Positions 10,300 to 62,110 of a DNA stretch of 64,000 bases are shown here, one piece after another; the stretch's first letter is position 1, and every line of letters starts with the position of its first letter. The DNA is from Ascaphus truei (Eukaryota; Chordata; Amphibia; Anura; Ascaphidae). Below the pieces are notes generated by a model. It searched no databases and had not been told where the DNA came from. It was given only the letters and a program-made list of their open reading frames with translations. The stretch is from NCBI GenBank assembly GCA_036426205.1, contig CM071570.1, positions 3,115,997 to 3,179,996 on the forward strand, read 5' to 3'. Made by a program: the position numbers and the translations under genes.

Positions 10300-10466
10300 A
10301 CATACATACATACATACATACACACATACACACATACATACACACATACATCATACATACATACACACCCACATACATACACACATACATACATACACAC
10401 ACATACATACATACACACACACATACATACATACACACACACATACATACATACATACATACATAC
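10101..10466. repeat. CATA/CA microsatellite, left part
   Basis: Tetranucleotide (CATA)n mixed with (CA)n. It is the left half of a microsatellite split by the LTR element that starts at 10467. The right half resumes at 14792. Long Cys/Val/Tyr or His/Thr frames in all six frames are artefacts of the repeat. Confidence 0.97.
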
Positions 10467-11240
10467 TGTGACATAGTCCAAAGATGTTAGGCAGCTTTCT
10501 GCCCCATTTTAGAGCAGAAAGTGCAGGAATAGTTAAAAATGATCCGTTCCACAGCTTCCCATTAACTCAGGCAGCTGGATGGAAAATCCAGACCACAGAT
10601 TACTATGGCTCTAGTTCTCCCTCACCTGCTCTTCTAATCACATGCACAGGTACTTAGAGCAGAGAGGTTTTGCATTTCACTCTCTCTCCTTAGAGCCTGG
10701 AGGCTGGGGGTATCACTGCTCCCCTGTTTCCAGTGTCGGGGTTGACGGCCCCTCCACGTATCACAGTACCAGAGGATTTGCCTGGACACCACAAAACAGA
10801 TAAGCCAAACAAAGATGTATTACTGTTTGTAATGGACTATGCTGTATCTAGTGACCCTAATTGAGAGGGCATTGTTTTAAACTGGGGGAACCAGGTTAGT
10901 TGGCCCAGCAGCAGTTAGAGGCTGATTCTATGTGTAGTTAGATCCCTGAAAGGGATAGGATTTTGTTTATATCATTTGGTTTTATTTCTTGAAATAACAG
11001 TGTGGGAAATATTGTAACACTGAAATATGTGAACTGCTGAATGAAAGTATCTGAGTACCTCTAACCTTCACATGTTAAAGCTGCAGTACCTTACTTGGAT
11101 GAAAATAAAGCAGGCAGAAGCCTGAGTTAAGCAGCATAATACTTTGCATGATCCTGTTTGTTGTATAATTAACCCTAGAAGACTGTGTCGGGAAGAACCC
11201 AGACAGACGTCAGCACTACAAAAGAGGGGCGTTTGTCACA
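10467..11240 (+). repeat. 5' LTR
   Basis: 774 bp, TGTGACATAG to GTTTGTCACA. It matches 14028-14791 over its full length with scattered single-base differences. An AATAAA at 11104-11109 could be the polyadenylation signal. Confidence 0.9.
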
Positions 11241-11258
11241 TATGGTGGAGAATGCGGG
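11241..11258 (+). promoter_or_regulatory. Candidate primer binding site
   Basis: TGGTGGAGAATGCGGG begins two bases after the 5' LTR, where a tRNA primer site is expected. It starts with TGG, complementary to the CCA end of a tRNA. The tRNA species is not known to me. Confidence 0.55.
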
Positions 11259-11459
11259 TCGACACTAAAAAGTCTGTGGGTTTGCAAATAAATGCGGGGG
11301 TTGAAAATGGCCGCCCAGCTGAACTAAAGTACAGATGCTATGAGTGAAGTCTGTCCCACTGTGTATATCAGTTGTGCTTCTAGCATACACAGAGAATGTG
11401 CGAAGTGTGGATGCAATAGCACTTGAACCCAAACAGAAAACCAAAATGTTTTGCTGAAG

Positions 11460-11490
<31 letters not shown>

Positions 11491-11585
11491 TTGCATCTAG
11501 CAAGTGCTGTTTGTTAAAGCTATGCCTTTTTGCGGAATTGGTGAATTTGCAGCTAGCAAGTGCTGTATGTAAGTTGCTGAAGTGA

Positions 11586-11873
11586 GTGAAATCAGCTAGC
11601 AAATTGTCTCTGCCGGGTTTTATAAATGGCCGACGTGGGAATGTTTGTTTGCAATGCACGAATCTTGAAAAACAGTGTCCCTTCAGGCCATACGATGATG
11701 ATGACGACGACTCGTATGTGGCCCCTGGAGGAGAGCCGTACCCACAGATGAATTTAGTATGCTGGCCTTGTCATGAAGTAGGTCACATGGAAGATGTGTG
11801 TCCCAAAATTTTCAAAGACAAACAGCTGCAAAAGCAAGCATGCCCTGTGAGTGCAAGCAGATGTGGAAGCTGA
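11586..11873 (+). CDS. Gag-like zinc-knuckle protein fragment of the LTR element
   Basis: A 95-codon frame inside the LTR element. Near residue 60 it has CWPCHEVGHMEDVC, an exact CX2CX4HX4C zinc knuckle, the nucleic-acid-binding motif of retroelement Gag proteins. A second Cys group (CLQCTNLEKQC) and a run of six Asp lie upstream. A Cys-rich stretch around 11325-11420, in another frame, may be an earlier part. The next frame (11851-12045) overlaps its end, so a frameshift, natural or from sequencing error, probably separates one original ORF. I infer nucleocapsid-like function from the motif and position only. Start codon uncertain; the element appears decayed. Confidence 0.6.
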   Translation: MKSASKLSLPGFINGRRGNVCLQCTNLEKQCPFRPYDDDDDDSYVAPGGEPYPQMNLVCWPCHEVGHMEDVCPKIFKDKQLQKQACPVSASRCGS

Positions 11874-12045
11874 TACCAGTGAGTGTGTGCCCAGTACCAC
11901 TGATATCTCTGGAGCTAATAAAGCAAAAAGAAAAAGAAGAAAAAGAAAACGTTCCTCAAGTCCAGGGGAAGTGACGAGCCACTTGAACCTGCGCTGTCAG
12001 CACATGCTGTCAGAAAGGCGCCAGATGTGCTGCATACCGGAGTGA
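11851..12045 (+). pseudogene. Basic-tract fragment of the LTR element ORF
   Basis: A 64-codon frame overlapping the zinc-knuckle frame. It contains KAKRKRRKRKRSSSPGE, a strongly basic stretch like a nuclear-localisation or RNA-binding signal. It is probably a continuation of the gag-like ORF after a frameshift. Function is inference. Confidence 0.45.
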
Positions 12046-12106
12046 CCAGCAGAATTGTCATGGGAACAGTGGCAAGGAAAAGGAGGAGCAAAGGGAAGCT
12101 GAATCC

Positions 12107-12640
12107 TTGAACCAGGATAAAGAGGCTTTGGTTTCTGCACTCCAAGCTGCCCGCCATGATTATGAAGTCCTGCGGCAGGGATTGATGAAGAGGCGAGAAT
12201 GTTGGAAGAAGGAGAAAGAATCTAACAATAAGGTGCGAGAATGTTGGAACAAGGAGCGAGAAGCGAACGCCGAGTTACAGAGGTGTATACTCCCAGCTTT
12301 ACAAGAGCACAGGCTTTGAAGAAAACAGAGTCTCTCTTACGGAGTGAGCTGGAAGAGTGACGACTAATCTGGAAAAGGCCAACACCGTAATTGCCACCAT
12401 GGATGGAAAACAGATTAAGTCTGACAATTGATTGCTATCCTAAAACAGAATACGGAAGACTCACAAGAGGTTCATGGCGCTCAGCACAGAGGTGCACACT
12501 TACGCCTGGAGGGCCACTTCTGACCACAGAGCTGGGAATGTGTAAGCAAACCCAGGAGAATGCCCTAAGTGAGTTAGAGACTGTAACGCAAGAAAATGAG
12601 ACTCTGAAATTGGAAAATTCAGATTGACTGACCAAGCAGA
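12107..12640 (+). pseudogene. Coiled-coil-like segments of the LTR element ORF
   Basis: Frames 12107-12319 and 12391-12627 encode charged, helix-favouring sequence, for example KKEKESNNKVRECWNKERE and LSELETVTQENETLKLEN, with heptad-like spacing and no proline in the core stretches. They lie in different frames separated by stops, so this is read as one decayed or mis-sequenced coiled-coil region. No retroviral enzyme domain is visible. The origin is unknown; together with the IQ motifs downstream it suggests captured host sequence. Confidence 0.45.
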
Positions 12641-12859
12641 AAAGTAAAGAAACAGTTGACTCAGGAAATTAGAAGTGCAGAAGCACTGATGCACACTCAG
12701 AGCCAGCACCAGAAGAATGTGACGCTCGTAAACAGAATTGCGACATGTATGCACAAAACAGAATTCTCTCTCGTGGAGGAACTTAACATTTTGAAAAAGA
12801 GAAAAGCATTAAATAATTCAGAAGCACTGCAAAGCTCTTGTCCAAGGAAGAGGGAAAGA

Positions 12860-13430
12860 GAAATTATCGGCGTAAACGCGCCGCAACTATTCATCCTACA
12901 GGCTCCTACAGAGGGATTAAAATTCGTCGGTTCATCACCGAATAAAGCAGCCTGTGTTCTTCAATCATTTTAACCGTGCCCGCATGGTACGAAACAGGTT
13001 CCCTCATTATAAAGGAGCAACTATAAAAATCCAGTCTCTGACTAGGATGACACGAGAACAGGATTCGCTATCAAACCCGAGAAATGCGTCACTGTTTATC
13101 CAGCGGTACTTCCGCCTGAATAAATGTAGACCTCAGGAAAGAGAGGTCCAAGACACAGCCTGCCGGCTGCAAAGGTAAAATACCACAGGGTACAGCCGGA
13201 GTTAGTGAGAGCCCCATCAAGGTGAAGGTGCTCCAGGTAATCAGTGCTTCATCTTCTAAGTACCATAAAGGTTCAAAGGTCGCATCCAAAAGCGACGAAG
13301 GTCAACGCTGGGCCTGAATTTTTCCGGATCGCCCACTCTGGGCACACAATATAAAGACAAAGACTATCCGGCCCCAGAGTTCCGTCAGAAGCTAAAGAAA
13401 CAGTCCAGTCATTTGCAGTTTCGCAGCGCC
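12860..13430 (+). pseudogene. Decayed IQ-motif repeat region in the LTR element
   Basis: At least three IQ-like motifs appear across shifted frames: AATI..., then SYRGIKIRRFI (about 12870-12935); KAACVLQSF continuing as NRARMVRNRF after a one-base shift (about 12945-12998); and ATIKIQSLTRM plus ASLFIQRYFR (about 13015-13120). The spacing and the phrase RNRF....ATIKIQS..RM recall the IQ repeats of ASPM-type spindle proteins, where IQ motifs bind calmodulin. That resemblance is from memory and needs a search. A separate frame near 13345-13431 ends in a stop after FRSAYE. The region contains frameshifts and stops, so it is annotated as broken. An IQ region is not a standard part of LTR retrotransposons. 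Confidence 0.5.
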
Positions 13431-13431
13431 T

Positions 13432-14010
13432 ATGAATAAAGTCAGGAAATGTAATGGACTGGAAGTCAAGAAAAAAAAATGTGTTTGGGGGAATTGACCG
13501 ATTTTTTTTTGTTATTACACGTGTGGACTATGTCACGGACACTTAACTATGCAAATAAGCTATTGTGTTAAGGTATATTAGGCCTCTAGAATAAGCATTT
13601 TGTCAATGTTACATGTTTATTTGGTTCTCTGTGTTGAAAATTTAGCAAACTACAAATTAATATACAGGGTTGATGGCCCTTTCGGTTGGTAAATATATAA
13701 GAGGTTCAATTCTACAGTAAAAACACCCGGGAGAATATGAATTGTTTGTTTTGTGAATATATTTAGCATATCCTGGGTTGTAAGAATGTGTGCTAGACAC
13801 TTATTTTTCAAAATAGTTCCCTAATAGAGAGCAACAAAATATGTTTGCCAAGTATAGTCTCTTATGACGAAACCTAGTTGTCCATAATTGCCATGGAAAA
13901 AGTTCATATTCGTATCATGTGAATACTTAATGTTGTACTGAGAGTTAGCTCAAATTTCAGGTAGGACGCTCACCCCAGTGAGGTCCATGCCGCTCACCCC
14001 AGTAGGTGTG
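13432..14010 (+). other. Non-coding 3' interior of the LTR element
   Basis: AT-rich with no frame of note. It leads into the polypurine tract at 14015-14025. Confidence 0.6.
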
Positions 14011-14014
14011 AGCT

Positions 14015-14027
14015 GGGGAGGGGGATA
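14015..14027 (+). promoter_or_regulatory. Polypurine tract
   Basis: GGGGAGGGGGATA immediately precedes the 3' LTR start TGTGACA. This is the standard position for plus-strand priming in LTR retrotransposons. Confidence 0.85.
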
Positions 14028-14791
14028 TGTGACATAGTCCAAAGATGTTAGGCAGCTTTCTGCCCCATTTTAGAGCAGAAAGTGCAGGAATAGTTAAAAA
14101 TGATCCGTTCCACAGCTTCCCATTAACTCAGGCAGCTGGATGGAAATCCAGACCACAGATTACTATGGCTCTAGTTCTCCCTCACCTGCTCTTCTAATCA
14201 CTGCACAGGTACTTAGAGCAGAGAGGTTTTGCATTTCACTCTCTCTCCTTAGAGCCTGGAGCTGGGTATCACTGCTCCCCCTGTTTCCATGTCGGGGTTG
14301 ACGGCCCCTCCACGTATCACAGTACCAGAGGATTTGCCTGGACATCACAAAACAGATAAGCCAAACAAAGATGTATTACTGTTTGTAATGACTATGCTGT
14401 ATCTAGTGACCCTAATTGAGAGGGCATTTGTTTTAAACTGGGGGAACCAGGTTAGTTGGCCCACAGCAGTTAGAGGCTGATTCTATGTGTAGTTAATCCC
14501 TGAAAGGGATAGGATTTTGTTTATATCATTTGGTTTTTATTTCTGAAATAACAGTGTGGGAAATATTGTAACACTGAAATATGTTGAACTGCTGAATGAA
14601 AGTATCTGAGTACCTCTAACCTTCACATGTTAAAGCTGCGTACCTTACTTGGATGAAAAAAAGCGGCAGAAGCCTGAGTTAAGCACATAATACTTTGCAT
14701 GATCCTGTTTGTTGTATAATTAACCCTAGAAGACTGTGTCGGGAAGAACCCAGACAGACGTCAGCACTACAAAAGAGGGGCGTTTGTCACA
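14028..14791 (+). repeat. 3' LTR
   Basis: 764 bp, same ends as the 5' LTR. Most differences are single-base deletions relative to the 5' copy, some in homopolymers. Part of the apparent divergence may therefore be sequencing error, and age estimates would be unsafe. Confidence 0.9.
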
Positions 14792-15002
14792 ATACATACA
14801 TACATACACACACACACACATACACACACACATACATACATACATACACACACACATACATACACACATACACACATACACACACACATACATACACACA
14901 CATAAATACATACATATACATACATACATACATACATACATACACACACACATACACACACACACACATACATACACACATACATACATACATACATACA
15001 TG
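14792..15002. repeat. CATA/CA microsatellite, right part
   Basis: Resumes directly after the 3' LTR with ATACATACAT. It is the other half of the array that starts at 10101. Confidence 0.95.
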
Positions 15003-16518: not shown

Positions 16519-16908
16519 GGCCTCGGACACGCTTACCGCTGGCGTGCTGAGGCGTGCTGAGGCTCAGGGAAAGCGGGTGCTTTCCCTGGCCTTGCGGTTG
16601 CTTACCGCAAGCGCTCTCAGCAGCCGTCACGGGGCGGTCCGGGGGCGGGCGCGTCACTGGCCGGGGGCGGGCCAGTGACGTCACGGAGCTGGTTCGCCCT
16701 CATTGGGTGAACCGCTCACGTGACCGGCCTGTCTCGCCGGCAAGCGGGGGAATTTTAAATTCCCCTAAGACCTGCGCTTCCGCAAGCGCGCGGAAGCGCA
16801 GGTGAGCCCCTACTAAAGCCGCTCTAATTGCGACTGTAGGGGCTCAGTGCTGAGCGGGAGCGCGCGTCAGCACGCTTCCGCCAGCAAGCGCCAAACATGG
16901 CCAAGGCC
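16519..16908. mobile_element. PIF/Harbinger-like GC-rich MITE
   Basis: Flanked by TTA on both sides (16516-16518, 16909-16911). The ends GGCCTCGGACAC and, inverted, GGCCTTGGCCAT match partly. A 3-bp TTA duplication is the hallmark of PIF/Harbinger. Inside are a perfect CRE (TGACGTCA, near 16677), an inverted CCAAT box (CATTGG) and an E-box (CACGTG). Related copies lie at about 20106, 20992 and 42554. No transposase. Confidence 0.65.
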
Positions 16909-16979
16909 TTACATGTACACTGCATATATCAATCTATGCCCTGGCAGGTGAAAGAACCAATCAGAATGGTACTAAACAG

Positions 16980-17705
16980 ATGGTAGAGCTCTTCTCGGAC
17001 CGCACTGGGACCGCACTGGGACCGCACTGGGAAGGTATCGAGATTGCACTGACATTGCAAAGTATTTCTGCTGAGTTAACAGTGAAATTATTTTTTGGAC
17101 TTCCAGTACTTGCAGCAGAGGTTATATTTATTTTTGTAACAATTGCAAAGGGAATCGAGATCTTATCTTACATTAAACGGGCAATGGCTGAAAGGGAAGT
17201 AAACATAATGATGCCCCTTTATAAAGCATTAGTAAGACCACACCTTGAGTATGGAGTACAATTTTGGGCACCAATCCTTAGAAAATACTTTATGGAACTA
17301 GAGAGAGTGCAGAGAAGAGCCACCAAATTAATAAAGGGGGTGGATAATCTGATTTATGAGGAGAGGCTAGCTAAATTAGATGTATTTACATTAGAAAAGA
17401 GGCGTCTAAGAGGGGATATGTTAACAATATACAAATATATTTTGGGACAATACAAGGAGCTTTCAAAAGAACTATTCATCCCACGGGCAGTACAAAGGAC
17501 TCGGGCCATCCCTTAAGGTTGGAAGAAAGGAGATTTCACCAGCAACAAAGGAAAGGGTTCTTTACAGTAAGGGCAGTTACAGTGTGGGATTCATTACCCA
17601 TGCAGACTGTGATGGCAGATACAATTAATATCTTTAAAAAAAAAGGTTGGACATCTTTTTTAGAAAGGAAAGGTATATAGGGATTTGCCAAATAAGTAAA
17701 CATGG
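16980..17705 (+). pseudogene. CR1-type LINE, 3' ORF2 fragment
   Basis: From about residue 60 the frame reads MPLYKALVRPHLEYGVQFWAP..., then LERVQRRATKLIKGV and LEKRRLRGDM. This is the conserved C-terminal part of CR1/L2-group reverse transcriptases. The frame is interrupted at 17516 and continues in another frame (FFTVRAVTVWDSLP..., to about 17620). It is 5'-truncated, as usual for LINEs. The first 50-60 codons of the open frame are unrelated upstream sequence. An inverted relative lies at 23697-24375. Not functional. Confidence 0.8.
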
Positions 17706-44689: not shown

Positions 44690-45930
44690 ATATATATGTG
44701 TGTGTTAAGGCTACATTAATAGATACTGTTTACTTTGCTATAACCTCTGTGCTAGCGCGGGCCTGCAATGCATCACAGCAAAGAAATGATGAAGCACCCA
44801 TTCTGTTGTGGGTTTGGACATCTGCTTCTTCTCTCTCCTCTCATGCTTTATAAGTGTTTATGCAAACAAGCACACAGGATCAGAAACACCAATGAGGGCT
44901 GCAATCTTACATGTGATCCGCATACTGTACAAGGCATATGGTATTTCACTGGAAGCAGCTACGCCGTGCCCCAGAAGTCAGTATGAGTGTAACTCAGATC
45001 GTGTTAGTTTCTCGTCCCTTGATTTAAAAAGAAAATTATGTCTTGGTGTTAAAAATCATGATTTCCCAAATCTTCCAGCTTCTGAAGCTGCCATAACTGG
45101 TAACTGGCACAGGGCCCTGGAGAGAGCTCCATTTTAATCTCAAAATTTAAAATTCTTATGTCCTGTGAACGAAGTATCAGATTGAATAAATAATAACGGT
45201 GTTGGAAGAACAGATATTTTGAAGGCGCAATCCATGCAGTCGCTTACATGTGTTTTTTTGTTGTTTGCTTTTAATAAACCAGTTCTGTAGTATTAGATCA
45301 TACTTACTAAAAAAATGTTTAATTCCACTTTAATGCCATTTTGAATGAGTTTTAATACACTGAGCAGCCTTTTAATTTCTATAGCAGTGTTTAGCAACCT
45401 CCCCAGCAGTGCAAGATCTGTGTAACACTTTCCTGTTTGGGATATTTTGTTGCCAATGTTCCCAGCAGTTTGAGTTGCAAACTGTAACAATAGATAATGT
45501 TACCTTAGTAATTTAAACAAAAAAAACATTGTAGCTGCTGAGTTACACAGACTGAAGGATTGATTGATTGAAACGGAAAGGCAGCCATTAAGTGAACCCT
45601 GGGAAGCAGGATCTTTGCTGATCAATTACAGAAGAACTAATCGATCGGAAGCTTAGGTAATTCGTGTTCAATAAAGGTAATCAAAGGCTGTATATATTAA
45701 AACAAAAAATATATAAAGTTTAAAGTATCACTTAAACTGCCCCTATAAAGTACTGTAAGAGAAAAAACTAAAATGCAAATGCTGTAATACTGCGTACGTG
45801 GCCCGTCCCCATTATAGGGGTCCCGGGTTATGCCACGGACAAATGTTTGCTTTTCAGGGGCAGATGGGGCTGTCTGATCCAAACTCAGGTGAAGCTCCCT
45901 CCACCTCCGGTACCCCGGGCCCGATCACGT
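44690..45930. repeat. Probable dispersed repeat, unassigned
   Basis: Sequence such as CAGCCATTAAGTGAACCCTG and GGAAGCAGGATCTTTGCTGA resembles dispersed repeats I associate with frogs. No exon structure. The 109-codon frame at 44808-45137 has no known domain and overlaps another frame. Confidence 0.35.
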
Positions 45931-45933
45931 GAC

Positions 45934-48900
45934 GCGCAGTGCCGGGTGCGGGGGCACGGAGCAGGCTATCACGTGACGCACAGTGCCGGGGTGCGGTGGC
46001 ACGGAGCAGGCTATCACGTGACGCACAGTGCCGGGGTGCGGGGGCACGGAGCAGGCTATCACGTGACGCACAGTGCCGGGGTGCGGGGGCACGGAGCAGG
46101 CTATCACGTGACGCGCAGTGCCGGGGTGCGGGGGCACGGAGCAGGCTATCACGTGACGCGCAGTGCCGGGGTGCGGGGCACGGAGCAGGCTATCACGTGA
46201 CGCGCAGTGCCGGGGTGCGGGGGCACGGAGCAGGCTATCACGTGACGCGCAGTGCCGGGGTGCGGTGGCACGGAGCAGGCTATCACGTGACTGCGCAGTG
46301 TCGCGGGTCGGGGGCACGTAGCAGCTTTCACGTGACGCGCAGTGCGGGGTGCGGGGCACGGAGCAGGCTATCACGTGACGCGCCAGTGCCGTGGTGCGGG
46401 TACACGGAGCAGGCTATCACTTGACGCGCAGTGCCCCGGGGTGGCGGGGGCACGGAGTCAGGCTATCACGTGACGCACATGCCGGGGTGCGGGGGCACGG
46501 AGCAGGCTATCACGTGACGCGCAGTGCGGGGTGGCGGGGGCACGGATCAGGCTATCACGTGACGCGCAGTCCGGGGGTGGCGGGGCACGGAGCAGCTATC
46601 AACGTGACGCGCAGTGCCGGGGTGCGGGGGCAACGGAGCAGGCTATCAGTGACGCGCAGTGTCCGGGTGCGTGGGCACGAGCAGGCTATCACGTGACGCG
46701 CATGGTCGCCGGGGTGCGGGGCACGGAGCAGGCTATCACGTGACGCGTCGAAGTGCCGGGTGCGGGATCAAGCAATAACGAAGTGCCGGGTGCGTGGGGA
46801 AGCTATCACGGTTTGCGGCATATCGGAGGGGGTGCCAAGGGGGGGGGGGATCGGGGGGGGGGGTGGTCGAGGGAGCAACGGATCGTTCCAGGCACGTGAC
46901 GCGCAGTGCCGGGTTGCGGGGCACGGAGCAGCTATCACGTGACCGCGTTGCCGGGGTGCGGTGGCACGAGCAAGGCTAGTCACGTGACGCGCAGTGCCGG
47001 GTGCGGTGGCACGGAGCAGGCTAATCACATTGCAGGCGGTTGTGAACACGTCCAGTTCGCAGTGGCGTTAGTGGGTGCTTAGCTGTCACTTGGCAGGCTA
47101 TCACGTGACGCGTCAGGTTCCGAGGGTGCGGTTGGCAAGCGAGCGTCAGCTATCACGGTGAACACGTGCCGGGGTGCGGGCGGGGGGGTACAGCGGCGGT
47201 GCATGGGGGGGTCTATCATGACGCGCATTGCCTGGTGGCGCTATAGGCGACGGAGCAGCTATCACTGACGCACAGTGCCGGGGTGCGGTGGCACGGAGCA
47301 GGCTATCACGTGACGCACAGTGCCGGTGTGTGTGGCACGGAGCAGGCATTCATCCAGCTGACGCGCAGTGCCGCGGGTGCGGTGGCACGGAGCAGGGCTA
47401 ATCACGTGACGCCAGTGCAGGGGTGCGGTGCACGTCAGCAGGCCAGATCACGTGACCGCAAGTCCAGGTGTGCGGGGCACGGAGCAGGCTATCACTGTGA
47501 CGCAGCAGTGCCGGTGCGGTGGTACGGAGCACAATCGGCGGGGGGGGGGGGGCTGACGGACGATTGACGCTGCATCCCGGGGGTCTGCCGCGTTTCAGGA
47601 CGTCTGCACGTTCGTCATGCTTGTCGGGTTCACATTCTCGAGCTTGGTCCGGGGGGGGGCACGGGCGGGTGACGGGGGGGGTGGGTGGTCCGGTGGCGGT
47701 ACGTCGGATTGCCGGGGTCGGGCACGGAGCAAGGCTATCACTGACGCAGCAGTGCCGGGGTGCGGTGGACGGAGCAGGCTATCACGTGACGCGCAGTCGG
47801 GGTGCGGGGGCACGGAGCAGCTATATATCACGTGACGCGCATGTGCCGGGTGCGTGGCACTGAGCAGGCTATCACGTACGGCACAGTGCCGGGATGCGGG
47901 GCACGGAGCGATCACGTGACCGCATGCCGGGTGCGGGGGCACGGACACAGGCTATCACGTGACGCGCAGTGCCGGGTGCGGGGGCACGGAGCAGGCTATC
48001 AACACGTGACGCACATTGCCGGTGTGCTGGGGCACGGAGCAGGCTATCACGTGAACGCGCAGTGCCGGGGTGCGGGGCACGGCAGCTATCACTGACGCTC
48101 AGTGCCGGGTGCGGGGGCACGGAGCAGGCTATCACGTGACGGCAGCGTCCGGGGTGCGTGGCACCGAGCAGGCTATCACGTGACGCGCAGTGCCGGGGGT
48201 GCGGGCACGGAGCAGGCTATTCACGTGACGCGCAGTGCCGGGGTGCGGGGCACGGAGCAGGCTATCACGTGACGTGCAGTGCCGGGGTGCGGGGCACGGA
48301 GCAGGCTATCACGTGACGCGCAGTGCCGGGTGCTGGGGCCGGAGCAGGCTATCACGTGACGCGCATTGCCGGGGTGCGTGGCACGAGCAGGCTATCACTG
48401 ACGCGCTATGCCGGGGTGCGGTGGCACGAAGACGAGCGCTATCACGTGACTCGCAGTGCCGGTGTGCGGGCACGGAGCAGGCTATCACGTGACGCGCAGT
48501 GCCGGGTGCGGGGTCACGGAGCAGGCTATCACGTGACGCGCAGTGCGCGGTGCGGTGCACGGAGCGGCTATCACGTGAAATCGCAGTGCCGGGGTGGGGT
48601 GTCACGGAGCCAGGCTATCACGTGACGCGCAGTGCCCGGGGTGCGTGGCACGGAGCAGGCTATCAACGTGACGCACAGTGCCGGGGTGCGGTGGCACGGA
48701 GCAGGCTATCACGTGACGCGCAGTGCCGGGCTGCGGGGGCACATGCAGCTATCACGTGACCGCATGTGCCGGGTGCGGGGGCACGGAGCAGCTATCACTT
48801 GACGCGGCAGTGCCGGGTTTGGGGGCACGGAGCAGGCTACACGTGACGCGCGTGCCGGGGTGGCGGGGGCACGGAGCAGGCTATCACGTGAGCGCAGTGC

Positions 48901-49290
48901 CGGGGTGCGGTGCACGAGCAGGCTATCACGTGACGCGCAGTGCCGGGGTGTGCGGGGGCACGAGCAGGCTATCACGTGACGCGCAGTGCCGGGGTGACGG
49001 GGGTCACGGAGCGGTGATCACGTGAGCGCAGTGCCGGGGTGCGGGGCACGGAGCAGGCATCACGTGACGCGCATGCTCGGGGGGTGCGGGGCACGGAGCA
49101 GCTATCACGTGACGCGCAGTGCCGGGGCTGTGGCACGGAGCACTATCAACGTGACGCTCAGTGCCGGGGTGCGGGGGCACGGAGCAGGCTATCACGTGAC
49201 GCGCGTGCCGGGGTGCGGGGGCACGGAGCAGGCGTATCACGTGACGCGCAGTGCCGGGTGCGGTGGCACGGCGAAAAAGGAACAGAGCAG
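45934..49290. repeat. 45-bp GC-rich minisatellite with E-box in each unit
   Basis: Unit of 45 bp starting GCAGGCTATCACGTGACGCG and continuing CAGTGCCGGGGTGCGG. Roughly 70 units. Nearly every unit has TCACGTGAC (CACGTG E-box) and CpGs. Copies at 45940-46290 are clean; most later ones have indels, and a few contain foreign GC-rich inserts (about 46840-46880, 47530-47720). Long frames are by-products (15-residue repeats). Confidence 0.95.
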
Positions 49291-49754: not shown

Positions 49755-50386
49755 GCTTACCCCTGTCGGAAGGCTTATATTTTATTTCCACTACCCACAG
49801 ACTGGGTTAGAGCAAGATGTCTGCCTGCAACTTCAATACTTCTGGGTCACCACTCAGGCTATTCTCAGTAGCGCAATACATTCCAAGGTGTCTGAATCTG
49901 GCCTTATTCTTCAGTATAAACTCCTAAATGGCCGTTTTCAGCTGAAAATCCCTATTGAAGGCGATAGAGATATCTGCCCGAACGCCCCCGCTTCGCACCC
50001 TATAGATTTACCCAATGTGGGCTCCTTATACTAAACTATGCAGCGCCCAAAATCAAGTATTTAAACTAGGGAGTCACCAAATCCAAAGCTGCAATGTCAT
50101 CTCACAATGATGTCACAGCCTTCTATTGGCTGCTAGAGTGAGGCTGACCTCGGCGGCCATATTGTTTCTCCCGGACAAGAATTGTTCTAAGGGAACTTAA
50201 AAATGAAATATCTTAGGAACCATGGGGTTCCTGTAGGTTTGGGTACCGCAGTTCGGCTTTGAGGGAGCCCTTGTTTCCAGTAATATAGAATATATATGTG
50301 TGTAACAAAGAAAGCAGCAGCACGAATTGCTGCTTTAACAGAAGTACCAACAAATACATCTTTATTCAGGAGTCAGTAGGACTTAC
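49755..50386 (-). other. KIF3C intron 1, proximal part
   Basis: Sequence downstream (on the minus strand) of the exon's splice donor. Includes a block resembling 5820-5880. No second exon was found here or further left. Confidence 0.6.
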
Positions 50387-50389
50387 CTT
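50381..50389 (-). other. Splice donor of KIF3C coding exon 1
   Basis: On the minus strand the exon ends ...AAATTTAAG followed by GTAAGT, a full consensus donor. The break falls after Lys471 in phase 0, at the place where vertebrate KIF3 proteins continue with AMESKLL. The six codons that stay open past this point are intronic. Confidence 0.9.
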
Positions 50390-51799
50390 AAATTTTACAG
50401 CCAGCAGCTCTGTGGCCTCTTGTTCCTTGGTCAGATCTTCCATCATCTTCTCCTTCTCCTCGATCAGCTTCAGTTTCTCTTCAGCCAGCAAGCTGTGGTC
50501 GTCCTGAATGGCGGCCTTCTCCTGCTCCAGCCTCTCAGCCTGCTCCTTCAGGTAACTCCCAATGTTCTTCTCAATTAGGTTATTATCATTCTCTTCCTCT
50601 GTCTCTGTGTCCAGAGCACCCTCCCAGTCTCCTGACCTTTTCCTGCGGCTGTTCCTCCTCCTCTTCTTGCTCAGCATCCCTCGCTTTTCCAGCTGGGCCT
50701 TCAGCCTGGCAATCTCCTCCTGGAACTCCCTCAACAAGGTGTCCTTCGGATCTTCATTGATTCTGGGTTTGTTCTTGATGTTCTTGGCCCTGTTGGCAAA
50801 CCTGAGAGTTGACAAGGTCTCATCATAGTGGTGAGATGCTGGGCCCATTGTGGCCACCATGATGGTCTTGGCATTACCACCCAGAGAGTCCTGGAGCAAG
50901 CGGGTTAGCTTGGAGTCTCTGTAAGGGGTGTGGGTGCTCTTGCCATCCACCAGCGCTGATATCACATTACCAAGAGCTGAAAGTGAGAGATTAATTTTTG
51001 AAGCCTCCTTGGGCCTCTCACCGTTCATCCCCGTTTTGCTCTGTCGCTCACTGCCAGCCAAGTCTACCAGGTTGAGTTTCCCCACTCTGATGTGCTCTTC
51101 GCCATCTACGCCTGTTTCACTGCACTCCACTGTGATGACAAAGATGGCATGAGATCTGGAGCTGTGCTCGTTCATGTTGGTGCTGGCAACGGATCGGGAC
51201 TGGTTGCCTAAGTTCATGACATGCTCTATCTCCTTCACATTTTTGGTCACGAATGAAGAGAGGTCCTTGATATAAACCCCTGACTCAGGATTCTCCTTAA
51301 GCTCCAGCTTCCTGTTCTGGTCCTTGCACAAGAGGTCTCTGATCTCCTCCTGGTAGATCTCCAGGTAAGAGGCCCTCACCAGGTACTGCTGGTTTTGGGA
51401 CCGTGAGATATGGGTGAAAATATGGTCAAAGGAGTTGGGGATCACCCCCTTTTTCTCCGACTCGGCCCAAACACCTTGCATGGTGTAAGTCTTCCCCGTG
51501 CCAGTCTGCCCGTAAGCAAAGATGGTCCCATTGAAGCCCTGCAACACGGAATCTATAAGGGGCCTGACAGTCTCGTCGTACAAGTCAGCTTGCTTGGAGT
51601 TGGCATCGTACACAGCGTCAAACGTGAATGTTTTGGGCAGTTCCCCAGGAGACGCTCGGGGATGCTGGATGGTCACCTGCCCCAGCTTCACGTCCATAGA
51701 CACAATCTTGTTGTACCCGGCTGCCTCTTCTTTCCTGTTGGTGGGGCGGCATCGTACCACCACCTTCAGTGCCTCGCTGCTCTTGGTTTTACTGCACAT
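50387..51799 (-). CDS. KIF3C: Kinesin-like protein KIF3C, coding exon 1 (residues 1-471)
   Basis: KIF3C pairs with KIF3A in a kinesin-2 motor that moves cargo toward microtubule plus ends, mainly in neurons. The exon encodes the complete motor domain: strand 1 RCRP at 17-20, P-loop GQTGTGKT at 97-104, switch [10 protein letters not shown] at 210-218, switch II DLAGSE at 246-251, and [10 protein letters not shown] (neck linker region) near 344-353. A stalk start follows, with a basic patch ([11 protein letters not shown], about 378-388), an acidic patch (about 398-405) and charged coiled coil to 471. [26 protein letters not shown] and [11 protein letters not shown] identify KIF3C rather than KIF3B. 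The ATG follows GGGGCAGCAAG and aligns with the family start. The Gly-rich loop-11 insert of mammalian KIF3C is absent: [14 protein letters not shown] bridges it. A splice donor ends the exon. The tail, about 320 residues by the human length, is not in view. Confidence 0.97.
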
Positions 51800-52270
51800 C
51801 TTGCTGCCCCCCTCCCCTTCTGTGTCTGTCTGGTGCTCTTGTTTATTCCAGGCAGCTCACCTAGGAACACACAGACACACAGAATATTTTTCAGATGCAC
51901 ATATGCCTCGGTAGATTGTATATATATATTGGATTTTTTTCTGCCGGATGCTTCACCTTTTCTTTGCCGAGATGAAGGATTTAATTGGCATAATCCCCTG
52001 GCATCGGCTCCTTACAAATTGCAGAATATCCATTGCACACCATCCCTGAGATGCATGCAAAGCAATGCAGTCCCTTCTCAGTACAAAAGGAGCCAAGCGA
52101 TGTGGACCGCTGCTATATCCTGGGCCAAAAAAATATATATTAACAATAAAAGGATATCATGTAGAAAAGGGCAGGGGGTAGGAGGTACCGCTGTCAGATC
52201 TGGGAGATAATCCTCTCTGTGGTTCCTGAGAGGTCGTGGAAACGCCTAGTCTTGTTTTCAGCTGTGGATG
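51800..52270 (-). other. KIF3C 5' untranslated region / upstream
   Basis: Minus-strand 5' UTR directly before the ATG is purine-rich (GGGGAGGGGGGCAGCAAG). At 51861-51862 a pyrimidine/TG-rich stretch ends in CCTAG, which could be a splice acceptor for a separate 5' UTR exon, but TAGGTGAGC there could equally be a donor. Left open. Confidence 0.4.
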
Positions 52271-58596: not shown

Positions 58597-58819
58597 AAAG
58601 CAGTGTCACTGATTACTGAATAGTGGCCTTTGTCAGAGAACATCGTGTGTAGGTCACGGCTGCCCTGCTGTAGTGTGAACAGCTGAGCGGTATTGTTAAA
58701 GGGCCGGTGAGCAGGGTACAGGAGCGCAGGTTAAGGGTGACAATTACTGCACTTTCTAGGGAAGAAAAAAATAATCCGTTCTTCTAGAAATCTGCTACTG
58801 ACCACAAAAGCAGGGCCAA
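58597..58819. other. Unassigned
   Basis: Nothing recognised. Confidence 0.4.
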
Positions 58820-61800
58820 ACATCGAATCCCCCCCTGTTCTCACAGCTCTCTCTTTGGCAAACATCGACATCCCCCCTGTCTCACAGCTCTCTGCTTCGG
58901 CAAATACGGCATCCCCCCTTCCTGTCTCCAGCTCTTCTTCTGGCAAACATCGGCATCCCCCTGTCTCAAGAGCTCTCTCTCATGCCCAACATCGCATCCC
59001 CACCGTCTACAGCTCTCTTTCATGGCCAACACGACAATCCCCCCTGGTCTCACAGTCCTCTCTTCCGGCAAACATCGACATCCCCCCTGTCTCACAGCTC
59101 TCTCTTCCTGGCAAAACATCGATCCCCCCCTGTCTCACAGCTCTCTCTTCTGGCAAACATCGCACATCCCCCCGTCTCACAGCTCTGTCTCCTGGCCAAA
59201 ACTTCGCATCCCCCGTTCTCACAGCTTCCTTTTCTGGCCAACAGCGACATCCCCCGTCTCACGCTCTATCTTCTGGCCAAAATCGACATCCCCCCGTTCA
59301 TCACCAGCCTCTTTCTGCAAATCGGCATCCCCCTCACAGCTCTCTCTTCCTGGCCAACATCGGGCATCCCTCCCTGGTCTCACAAGCTCTCTCTTCCTGG
59401 CAAACATCGGCATCCCCCCCTGTCTCACAGCTCTCTCTTCCTGGCCAAACTTCGGCATCCCCCCGTCTCACAGCTCTCTCTTCCTGGCCAAACATCGGCA
59501 TCCCCCTGTCTCACAGCTATCTTCTTCCTGGCAAACATCAAACATCCCTCCCTGTCTCACAGTCTCCTTCCTGGCCAAAATCGACTACCCCCCGTCTCAA
59601 CAGCTCTCTCTTCCGGACAAAACATCGGCAACCCCCGTCTCACAGCCTCTCTCTTCCTGGCCCAAACATCGGACATCCCCCCCCTGTCTCACGCTCTCTC
59701 TTCCTGGCCCAAACATCGAGCATCCCACCCTGTCTCACAGCTCTCTCTGTATGGCCCAAAATCGACATCCCCCCATCTCAAAGCTTTCTCTTCCTGCCCA
59801 AGCACGGCATCCCACCGCTCACAGCTCCTCTCCGTTCCTGGCAAACATCGGCATCCATCCCGTCTCACAGCTCTCTCTTCTGGCCAAACTCGCATCCCCC
59901 GTCGTCTCGCTCTCCTTCTTGCAAACATCAAAATCCAGCCTGATCTCCACAGCTCTCTTCTGGCCAAAACACGGACATCCCCCCCTGTATCAAAGCAACC
60001 TATCTGATAAGCCAAACATCGGCATCCCCTCCTCACAGCTCTCTCTTCATGCGCAAACATCTCGTGCATAGCCCCTGTCTCACAGCTCTCTTATTCCTGG
60101 CAAACATCGACATCCCTCCTGTCTCCAGCATCCTCTTCGCAAACATCGGCATCCCCCCTGTCTCACAGCCCTCTGCTGGCAAAATCGACATCCCCGTATC
60201 ACAGCTCTCTCTTCTGGCCAAACATCAGCATCCCACCCCTGGTCTCACAGCTCTCTTAACTGGCCAAACATCGGCATCCCCCTGTTCACGCATCGTCTTC
60301 TGGCAAACATGACGCCATCCCGCCCCTGCTCACAGCTCTCTACTTCCTGGGCAAAACATCGGCATCCCCCCGTCTCACAGCTCTCTCTTCCTGGCCAACA
60401 TCGGCATCCCCCCTGTCTCAACAGCTCTCTTCTTCCTGGCCAAACATCGGCATTCCCCATGCTCACAGCTCTCTCATTCCTGGCCAAACATCGACACTCC
60501 CCCCCTGTCTCAACCTCGACTCTTCCTGGCCAAACACGACATCCCCAACCTGTCTCACAGCTCTCTCTCTTGCCTGGCCACAACATCGGCATCCCGCCCT
60601 CTCACACGACCTCTCCTACTTCCTCGCGGCCACAAACATCGACTTACCTGTCTCAAAGCTCCTCTCTTCCTGGCCAAAAAAAACTCATCGACATCCCCCC
60701 CTTATCACAGCTCTCTCTTCCTGGCAAAACGAACTCCCCCCCCTGTCTCACGCTCTCTTCTTGCTGGCAAACTTCGCACCCCCCAGCTCACAGCTCATCT
60801 TTCCTGGCCAAACATCGGCATCCCCCCGTCTCACAAGCTTCTCTCTCCTAGGCCAAACTTCGGCATCCCCCACGCTCACAGCTCTCTCTTCCTGGCCAAA
60901 CTCGATATCCCTCCCGGTCTCACAGCTATCTCTTCCTGGCAAAATCGCATCCCACCTCTCACAGCCTTCTCGGCAAACATCGATTCACACTCGCTCATGC
61001 TCTCACAGAACCTGCCATCTCTTGCCTGGCCAAACTTCGGCATACCCCCCGTTCTCACAGCTCTCTTTCCTGGCCAAACATCGGCATCCCCCTGTCTACA
61101 CAGCTCTCTCTTCTGGACAAAACATCGATTATCCTCCCTGTCTCACAGCTCTCCTTCCTGGCAAACATCGACCCTATCCCCCGGTACTCAGCAGCTCTCT
61201 TTCCTAGGCCTAACATCAGCATCCCCCCGTCTCACAGCTCTCTCTTCCTGGAAAACATCGATCATCTCTCCTGTCTCACAGCTCTCTCTTCCTGGCCACA
61301 ACATCGGACATCCCCTGTCTCACAGCTCTATCTTTCTGGCCAAAATCGAAGCATACCACCCACCGTTCACAGCTCTCTCTTCTGGCAAACATCAACATCC
61401 CGCCTGTCTCACAGCTCTCTCTTCCTGGCCAAAAAATGGCTCCCCCACGTCTCCAGCTCTCTATTCTGGCAAAACATCGGCATCCCACCTGTCTCACAGC
61501 TCTTCTTCTGGCCCAAACATCGGCATCTCACCTGTCTCACAGCTCATCTCATTCCTGGCAAACATCGACATCCCTCCCGTCTCACAGCTCTCTTTCTGGC
61601 AAAATCGGCATCCCCCCTGTCTCACAGCTCTCTCTCCTGGCAAACATCAGCATCCCCCCCTGTATCACAGCCTTCTTACTGGCCAAAATCAGCATCCTCC
61701 TCACAGCTCTCAGCACTGGACACATCGCCTCCAATCTCCAGATCTCTCTTCATGGCAAAACATCGAATTCCCACCTGTTCACAGCTCTCTCTCTGGCCAA

Positions 61801-62110
61801 ACATCGACCATCATCCACCTGTCTCTACAGCTCCTCTCTTTCCTAGCCCCAAAAATCGACAATCATCCCCTGTCCTCACAGCTCTCTCTTCTGCACAACA
61901 CGACATTCAGCCCCCTGTCTCAAAGCTTCTTTCATGGCACATCGGCATTCCGTCCTGTCCTCACAGTCTCTCTTCCTGGCCAAACACTCGACATTCCCCC
62001 CGGTCTCACAGTCCTCTTCTTCCTGCCCAAAACATCGACATCCCCCCCCGTCTCACACGTCTCTCTTCGGACACAAACATCGGCATCCCCCCCTTCTCAC
62101 AGCGCGCTCT
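58820..62110. repeat. 43-bp minisatellite array
   Basis: Unit of about 43 bp containing TCTCTCTTCCTGGCCAAACA then TCGGCATCCCCCCGTCTCAC then AGC. About 75 copies, indel-rich throughout. The 340-380-codon Ser/Pro/His-rich frames on the plus strand are artefacts. Confidence 0.95.

What the first reader, a model, noticed from the sequence alone, without database searches (positions are those of the whole stretch)
10467..14791. LTR retrotransposon with zinc knuckle and IQ motifs but no visible pol
The LTRs, terminal inverted TGTGACA/TGTCACA, primer-site position and polypurine tract are all in place. The 2.8-kb interior shows a CCHC knuckle, a basic tract, coiled-coil segments and then IQ-like motifs instead of enzymes. 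RNRF....ATIKIQS..RM and ASLFIQRYFR resemble ASPM-type IQ repeats. This suggests a non-autonomous element that captured and mobilised part of a host IQ/coiled-coil gene.
Basis: partly seen in the sequence, partly recalled or inferred. Interest (0 to 1): 0.75.

Follow-up and report, generated by a model that had tools for sequence, protein, structure and literature searches.

The report
Frog LTR element carrying myosin-like gene
A recently inserted, enzyme-less retrotransposon, probably from a frog genome, carries one long coding region that fuses a zinc knuckle to a piece resembling a muscle myosin tail and to calmodulin-binding (IQ) repeats, and a related frog protein carries a lamin-like piece instead, so the element may be a natural shuffler of filament-protein parts.

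Summary
Window 10467-14791 is an LTR element: LTRs 10467-11240 and 14028-14791 (1 substitution, 17 gaps of 1-2 bases), PBS and PPT each 2 nt from an LTR, a target duplication consistent with 4 bp, and no Pfam pol domain in six frames. The frameshifts look mostly like assembly error. The interior maps onto an annotated tailed-frog protein, P0001 (Ascaphus truei, 493 aa): 402 of 463 aligned residues identical, no in-frame stop. P0001 has Pfam IQ repeats (6.5e-8). Its coil matches the sarcomeric myosin rod (MYH7 1401-1583, 2.1e-9; three consecutive MYH7 pieces each 0 of 500 block shuffles). Another A. truei protein, P0003, shares the zinc-knuckle N-terminus and the C-terminus but carries a lamin A/C-like coil (1.8e-9). 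Best reading: a gene-transducing, non-autonomous LTR family in a vertebrate, with captured filament coils exchanged between shared terminal modules. ASPM as IQ source is untested. Copy number, partner, and whether P0001-P0003 are elements or host genes are unknown, because the own-genome search did not complete (16 tries).

The parts
10467..11240 (+). 5' LTR (TGTGACA...TGTCACA); AATAAA at 11104
14028..14791 (+). 3' LTR; 1 substitution and 17 gaps (18 bases) against the 5' LTR
10463..10466 (.). left copy of target duplication, ATAC (consistent with 4 bp by array phase; ambiguous because the target is (ATAC)n)
14792..14795 (.). right copy of target duplication, ATAC
11243..11258 (+). primer-binding site TGGTGGAGAATGCGGG, 2 nt after the LTR; resembles the complement of a tRNA-Ala 3' end (tRNA identity recalled, from no call)
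   Evidence: letters:
14015..14025 (+). polypurine tract GGGGAGGGGGA, 2 nt before the 3' LTR
11688..13218 (+). coding region as mapped by P0001 (residues 2-493): 402 of 463 aligned residues identical, 0 in-frame stops, 34 frameshift steps
11760..11801 (+). CCHC zinc knuckle (CX2CX4HX4C); closely similar N-terminal module in P0001, P0002, P0003
   Evidence: Pfam zf-CCHC on P0001 only E 0.059, below cut-off
12116..12799 (+). myosin heavy-chain rod-like coiled coil (P0001 130-352)
   Evidence: start read
12880..13175 (+). IQ repeats, motif starts 12947, 13017, 13086 and a weaker 13155, plus one near 12880 read by eye (P0001 cores at residues 385, 407, 430, 453)
   Evidence: first start
13275..13494 (+). 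C-terminal module shared with P0003 (within 491-585)
   Evidence: one search score 127 vs shuffle maximum 71, 0 of 300

Best explanation
A young, non-autonomous LTR retrotransposon insertion of a gene-transducing family in the tailed-frog lineage. Shown: the LTR anatomy; no recognisable pol; one protein-coding lineage shared with A. truei proteins; similarity of its middle to a sarcomeric myosin rod and IQ repeats, and of a sister protein's middle to a lamin rod, between shared N- and C-terminal modules. Inferred: host mRNA pieces were joined to the element by template switching during reverse transcription (the rod match runs through what is, from recall, several exons). The element RNA is primed by tRNA-Ala and is copied and integrated by enzymes of an unseen autonomous partner. 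The encoded protein binds nucleic acid through the zinc knuckle and self-assembles through the borrowed filament coil, with IQ motifs that may bind calmodulin or light chains. In that reading it is a stand-in for Gag or an RNP scaffold, and the coil is a replaceable oligomerisation cassette.
For: LTR/PBS/PPT/target anatomy. Six-frame Pfam scan without gag capsid, protease, RT, RNase H or integrase. Near full-length map to P0001 at 86.8% identity with no in-frame stop. MYH7 1401-1583 E 2.1e-9; P0001 against three consecutive MYH7 pieces, 0/500 block shuffles each; one block-shuffled rod query gave no PDB match at E<=10. Window DNA itself: MYH7 1401-1494 score 88, 0/500; MYH7 1325-1390 score 70, 6/500. 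Pfam IQ 6.5e-8. P0003: lamin A/C 1.8e-9, 35/102 identical without a gap, 0/500; its block-shuffled control gave one PDB match, a designed fold at E 1.5. P0003 N module 344 vs shuffle maximum 59, C module 127 vs 71. AlphaFold2 gives helices 126-210 and 219-456 (mean pLDDT 61.3; 10-residue means 59-88 within 131-450). About 30-40% identity to the presumed source with the frame still open suggests long retention under selection (inference).
Against: The third MYH7 piece is at chance on the window DNA (129/500). P0002 against MYH7 1325-1390 was reached by 26 of 500 shuffles, and the first two MYH7 alignments overlap by 15 residues on P0001. On its own the 1325-1390 stretch in the PDB search had i-Evalue 20. 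The window's 110-aa coil piece alone found no myosin. Pfam's myosin-tail family did not appear for P0001 at E<=1; Pfam Filament on P0003 was 17.3 bits against a 40 cut-off. Coiled coils cross-match: SMC at 1.1e-3 in NCBIfam. Structure search was uninformative (best E 0.14). No genomic context exists for P0001 to P0003, so they may be host genes; 'isoform X2' could mean an exon-intron gene model. No autonomous partner or second DNA copy was seen (no other copy in the window). In the frameshift-tolerant alignment a stop costs 6 and a frameshift 9, so some stops could have been stepped round. The Gag-like role is untested.
Confidence: 0.6

Rival explanations
1. The chimeric CCHC-coil-IQ protein belongs to a host gene family of the tailed frog, and this element is a single LTR-mediated retrocopy of one member, without a role in transposition.
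For: P0001 is annotated as a gene with isoforms. Only 3 proteins matched among the 7988 candidates scored, fewer than an abundant family might give. LTR-mediated retrocopies are described in vertebrates (PMC5408686, passages).
Against: P0001 and P0003 share ends with different middles, more like recombining elements. The zinc knuckle sits where Gag's would be in an LTR element (inference).
Confidence: 0.22
2. An LTR element whose own Gag-like coiled-coil protein only resembles myosin and lamin by convergent heptad composition.
For: Coiled coils give spurious matches; no Pfam myosin tail match at E<=1.
Against: Shuffling the MYH7 and lamin pieces in blocks of seven residues keeps composition and local pattern, yet 0/500 reach the score of P0001 for three consecutive MYH7 pieces or of P0003 for the gapless 102-residue lamin match. 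P0001 against lamin is at chance, 231/500. The IQ repeats are a specific motif.
Confidence: 0.1
3. A decayed autonomous retrotransposon whose pol was deleted and whose coding region is dead.
For: 34 frameshift steps in the alignment to P0001.
Against: The LTR pair shows the same kind of small gaps (17) with 1 substitution, a long-read error signature. 0 in-frame stops on 463 aligned codons. An intact homologue exists (P0001).
Confidence: 0.06

Closest known systems
Bs1 of maize (LTR retroelement with transduced host gene segments)
   Same: LTR element with segments of three host genes (passage of PMC13317346; also PMC7264820); the hybrid single ORF is named in a reference title shown there (Elrouby and Bureau 2001). 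That Bs1 is non-autonomous is recalled.
   Different: Vertebrate host; cargo is filament/motor coiled coil plus IQ repeats; related proteins keep the ends and carry different coils; the cargo is strongly diverged from its presumed sources.
TR-GAG / LARD-type non-autonomous LTR elements
   Same: LTRs, PBS and PPT, no pol; a zinc knuckle as in Gag.
   Different: No Gag capsid recognised; most of the coding region resembles cytoskeletal genes. Class definitions recalled; TR-GAG seen only in a search listing.
LTR-mediated retrocopies in metazoans (Tan et al. 2016)
   Same: Host mRNA joined to an LTR retroelement by template switching, as reviewed in PMC5408686 (passages).
   Different: Described there as retrocopies of parental mRNAs; here a multi-source fusion. 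The primary paper was not held.
Acute transforming retroviruses with transduced cellular genes
   Same: Host coding sequence in place of pol-type genes; a helper is needed (recalled).
   Different: No sign of env or of viral Gag in the Pfam scan; diverged cargo.

Membership tests
LTR retrotransposon (order) | near-identical direct LTRs with TG...CA ends | tested here: met
LTR retrotransposon (order) | tRNA primer site and polypurine tract next to the LTRs | tested here: met
   positions and letters; tRNA-Ala match recalled, not computed
LTR retrotransposon (order) | short target-site duplication | tested here: inconclusive
   phase of (ATAC)n fits 4 bp, but also 0 or 8
Autonomous LTR retrotransposon / endogenous retrovirus | gag capsid, protease, RT, RNase H, integrase (env) | tested here: not met
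   six-frame Pfam scan at E<=1: only IQ, E 0.68
Gene-transducing LTR element (Bs1-like) | host coding segments joined in one coding region between LTRs | tested here: met
   MYH7-like rod and IQ; host origin inferred from similarity of 28/70, 28/87, 38/100
Gene-transducing LTR element (Bs1-like) | several dispersed copies sharing the capture junctions | not tested
   own-genome search unanswered 16 times; protein-level sharing only
Gene-transducing LTR element (Bs1-like) | cargo derived from spliced mRNA | tested here: inconclusive
   P0001 rod match covers MYH7 1325-1583 and maps to contiguous window DNA; MYH exon structure recalled
IQ-motif protein | Pfam IQ above cut-off | tested here: met
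   P0001 32.1 bits vs cut-off 20.3; window piece alone 12.7, below
ASPM | similarity to ASPM rather than to other IQ proteins | not testable with these tools
   no ASPM match or sequence at hand; nearest solved relative Myosin-5A
Retroviral/Ty3-type CCHC zinc knuckle | CX2CX4HX4C plus family score | tested here: inconclusive
   spacing met; Pfam 13.9 bits vs 20.8 cut-off on P0001, 12.8 on P0003

The most novel reading that the evidence does not exclude
A vertebrate LTR family has replaced the capsid part of Gag by host filament coiled coils, and swaps them (muscle myosin rod plus IQ lever repeats in one lineage, lamin rod in another) between a constant zinc-knuckle head and a constant tail. 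The borrowed coils would act as interchangeable assembly cassettes for its RNA particle or for riding the host cytoskeleton or nuclear lamina.
Probability: 0.22. Interest if true: 0.88.

Novelty: new variant of a known kind. Interest (0 to 1): 0.63.

Why it matters
Gene capture by LTR elements is documented in plants (Bs1) and, from recall, for transforming retroviruses; the captured piece is often seen as a passenger. Here the open frame has been kept while the sequence drifted to about 30-40% identity with the presumed source, and two related proteins keep the same ends around different filament coils. If the loci prove to be LTR elements, this is a natural system for asking whether a retroelement can build its particle from borrowed cytoskeletal parts, and how new fusion genes arise in vertebrates.

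Tried and rejected
ASPM as the single source: no support could be obtained; the coil matches sarcomeric myosin instead. Decayed gag/pol: six-frame Pfam scan empty apart from sub-threshold IQ; single pieces gave only sub-threshold IQ and DUF3747 (E 0.068). The frameshifts as decay: rejected as the main cause because the LTR pair differs by 17 small gaps but 1 substitution, while one KIF3C-like exon in the same window lies in a 496-aa open frame; that is a single comparison. Lamin in the window copy: not found (P0003 221-400 scored 53, 46 of 300 shuffles as high; LMNA piece 69 of 500). Structure search with the AlphaFold2 model gave only generic helical matches and is not used. The 85-aa IQ piece alone found no homologue, probably because of the tool's length limit. 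The 110-aa coil piece of the window alone found no myosin in the PDB. Window-wide Rfam and tRNA scans found nothing. NCBIfam matches of P0001 and P0003 to SMC, Lrs14, MreC and others (E 1e-3 and weaker), and the sub-threshold Pfam matches Takusan (P0001), Fez1 (P0002) and MOV-10 (P0003), were taken as noise.
Full report
Anatomy. The element occupies 10467-14791. Its LTRs (774 and 764 nt) differ by one substitution and 17 gaps: 13 in the 3' copy (12 single bases and one of two) and 4 single bases in the 5' copy. The ends are TGTGACA/TGTCACA. Two bases (TA) lie between the 5' LTR and TGGTGGAGAATGCGGG, and two (TA) between GGGGAGGGGGA and the 3' LTR. This is what a PBS, a PPT and two-base end trimming by an integrase would leave (established knowledge). 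From recall, the PBS fits a tRNA-Ala 3' end; no call tested this. The insertion split an (ATAC)n array, and the phase of the array fits a 4-bp duplication but cannot prove it.

Frameshifts. One substitution against 17 small gaps is not how LTR pairs normally age. It is the pattern of long-read assembly errors left in repeats (inference). In the same window an exon most like KIF3C (best PDB match KIF3C 6.8e-197, KIF3B 1.7e-194) lies in an open frame of 496 aa. The broken frames in the interior therefore say little about decay. A table passage of PMC12822217 lists a long-read assembly of A. truei; whether the window comes from it is unknown. The single substitution points to a recent insertion.

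No pol. The six interior frames, stops as X, matched only Pfam IQ (E 0.68) at E<=1. PBS and PPT orientation agree with the strand of the coding region.

The coding lineage. Searching the IQ part with lengths set by the whole interior found one protein among 5 candidates: P0001, 'uncharacterized protein LOC142466763 isoform X2' of Ascaphus truei, 493 aa, E 5.5e-17. Searching with P0001 gave 3 proteins at E<=10 among the 7988 candidates scored (a capped list of proteins 0.55 to 1.75 times its length), all A. truei: P0001 itself, P0002 (372 aa, 79% identity over 73%) and P0003 (585 aa, 54% over 41%). A frameshift-tolerant alignment maps P0001 residues 2-493 to window 11688-13218: 463 aligned residues, 402 identical, 0 stops, 34 frameshift steps, 29 extra codons and 8 missing residues. 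P0002 maps at 314 of 351. One shuffled P0001 scored 42 against 1474. Stops cost 6 and frameshifts 9 in that script, so a few stops could have been stepped round. The window is probably from A. truei or a close relative; this is an inference from hits, not shown.

What the protein is made of. Near the N-terminus lies a CX2CX4HX4C knuckle (Pfam zf-CCHC 13.9 bits, below the 20.8 cut-off) and a lysine-rich tract. Residues 170-349 match the rod of sarcomeric myosin heavy chain (Myosin-7 1401-1583, E 2.1e-9; Myosin-4 7.2e-9). A further stretch, residues 130-198 against Myosin-7 1325-1390, lies in order but is weak on its own (i-Evalue 20). Residues 363-458 match the IQ neck of Myosin-5A (1.1e-5) (all). 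Pfam IQ is 6.5e-8, and [ILVF]QxxxR cores sit at 385, 407, 430 and 453. Because coiled coils match each other falsely, I shuffled the MYH7 and lamin pieces in blocks of seven residues. For P0001 against MYH7 1325-1390, 1401-1494 and 1495-1583 the scores were 96, 127 and 120, each 0 of 500 shuffles (residues 131-196, 182-268 and 271-360; the first two overlap by 15). P0001 against lamin was at chance (231 of 500). For P0002 the same three gave 26, 0 and 0 of 500, and lamin 20 of 500. A block-shuffled rod query found no PDB chain at E<=10; a block-shuffled P0003 query found one, a designed fold at E 1.5. On the window DNA itself, MYH7 1401-1494 gave 0 of 500 and 1325-1390 gave 6 of 500, but 1495-1583 gave 129 of 500, so the third piece is not supported by the window copy alone. 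Pfam's myosin-tail family did not appear at E<=1.

A sister with different cargo. P0003's first 100 residues (score 344 against a shuffle maximum of 59, alignment ending at residue 90) and last 95 (127 against 71) are shared with the window element, 0 of 300 shuffles each. Its residues 221-400 (46 of 300 shuffles as high) and 401-490 (104 of 300) are not. Residues 227-335 match lamin A/C 36-144 at 1.8e-9; the local alignment has 35 of 102 identical without a gap and 0 of 500 shuffles. Pfam Filament on P0003 is 17.3 bits, below its cut-off of 40. Its 101-220 stretch has weak similarity to the window (70 against a maximum of 61; 0 of 300), including a block like the myosin-like EKVKKQLTQEKLEVQEALQN of P0001. 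P0003 against the three MYH7 pieces gave 248, 74 and 1 of 500. So P0003 looks like a derivative of the same lineage in which a lamin-like rod follows a remnant of the myosin-like part; this is my reading of two proteins, not a tree.

IQ periodicity. Independently of P0001, a loose motif, widened after the stricter one, forms a chain of four in the window at 69+-3 nt (12947, 13017, 13086, 13155). 1000 codon shuffles gave at most three, twice. A further start near 12880 was read by eye.

Structure. AlphaFold2 on the 3-sequence alignment gave helices 126-210 and 219-456 and little else (mean pLDDT 61.3, pTM 0.26). Foldseek's best PDB match had E 0.14. This supports only 'long helix'.

Mechanism. 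Most likely host mRNA segments were joined to an LTR element by template switching in reverse transcription, as reviewed for metazoan LTR-mediated retrocopies (PMC5408686, passages seen) and in line with the gene segments transduced by maize Bs1 (PMC13317346 and PMC7264820, passages seen). Retention of a 493-codon frame while identity to the presumed source fell to 28/70, 28/87 and 38/100 suggests selection on the protein rather than passive carriage. Annotation favours intact frames, so P0001 alone is biased evidence; the window copy, not chosen for its frame, adds 0 stops in 463 aligned codons, with the caveat above. A zinc knuckle joined to an assembling coil is what one would expect of a minimal RNA-binding scaffold; this last step is inference.

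What is not known. No genomic context for P0001 to P0003, no copy number, no autonomous partner: the own-genome search did not complete (16 tries, listed in Tried and rejected). The window holds no second copy by blastn at 1e-3. Ten literature searches (open-licence PMC only, lists capped at 8 to 15 papers each) listed no vertebrate LTR element with myosin or lamin cargo, judged from titles and abstract starts. Four papers were opened, at passages only.

Classification. It meets the structural tests of an LTR retrotransposon (target duplication inconclusive), fails those of an autonomous one or of a retrovirus, and works like Bs1-type gene-transducing elements. I call it a new variant of that kind because of its vertebrate host, its filament/motor cargo and the apparent swap of cargo between constant ends.

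Noticed in passing
window 50366-51853 (-): Kinesin-2 exon in a 496-aa open frame, best PDB match KIF3C 6.8e-197, KIF3B 1.7e-194: points to an animal, from recall vertebrate, genome.
   Followed up: partly
window 13524-13536: 13 nt just after the coding region are the exact inverted copy of the LTR start (GTGACATAGTCCA at 10468). Role unknown.
   Followed up: partly
window 11460-11486: 27-base A run in the 5' untranslated part of the element, with short repeats CTAGCAAGTGCTGT nearby (read). Possibly a relic of a joined polyadenylated RNA; untested.
   Followed up: no
window 16854-17513 (+): 220-aa open frame that looks like a LINE (CR1-type) reverse transcriptase remnant; label recalled, Pfam gave only a sub-threshold DUF.
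   Followed up: no
window 58814-62110 and 45924-49271: Very long minisatellite arrays (units about 43-88 and 44-45 bp); the first holds open frames up to 605 aa that look like by-products of the repeat.
   Followed up: no
window 12848-12916 against P0002 351-372: P0002 ends in a reading that resembles an alternative frame of the IQ region, so the IQ DNA probably continues in that copy (inference).
   Followed up: partly
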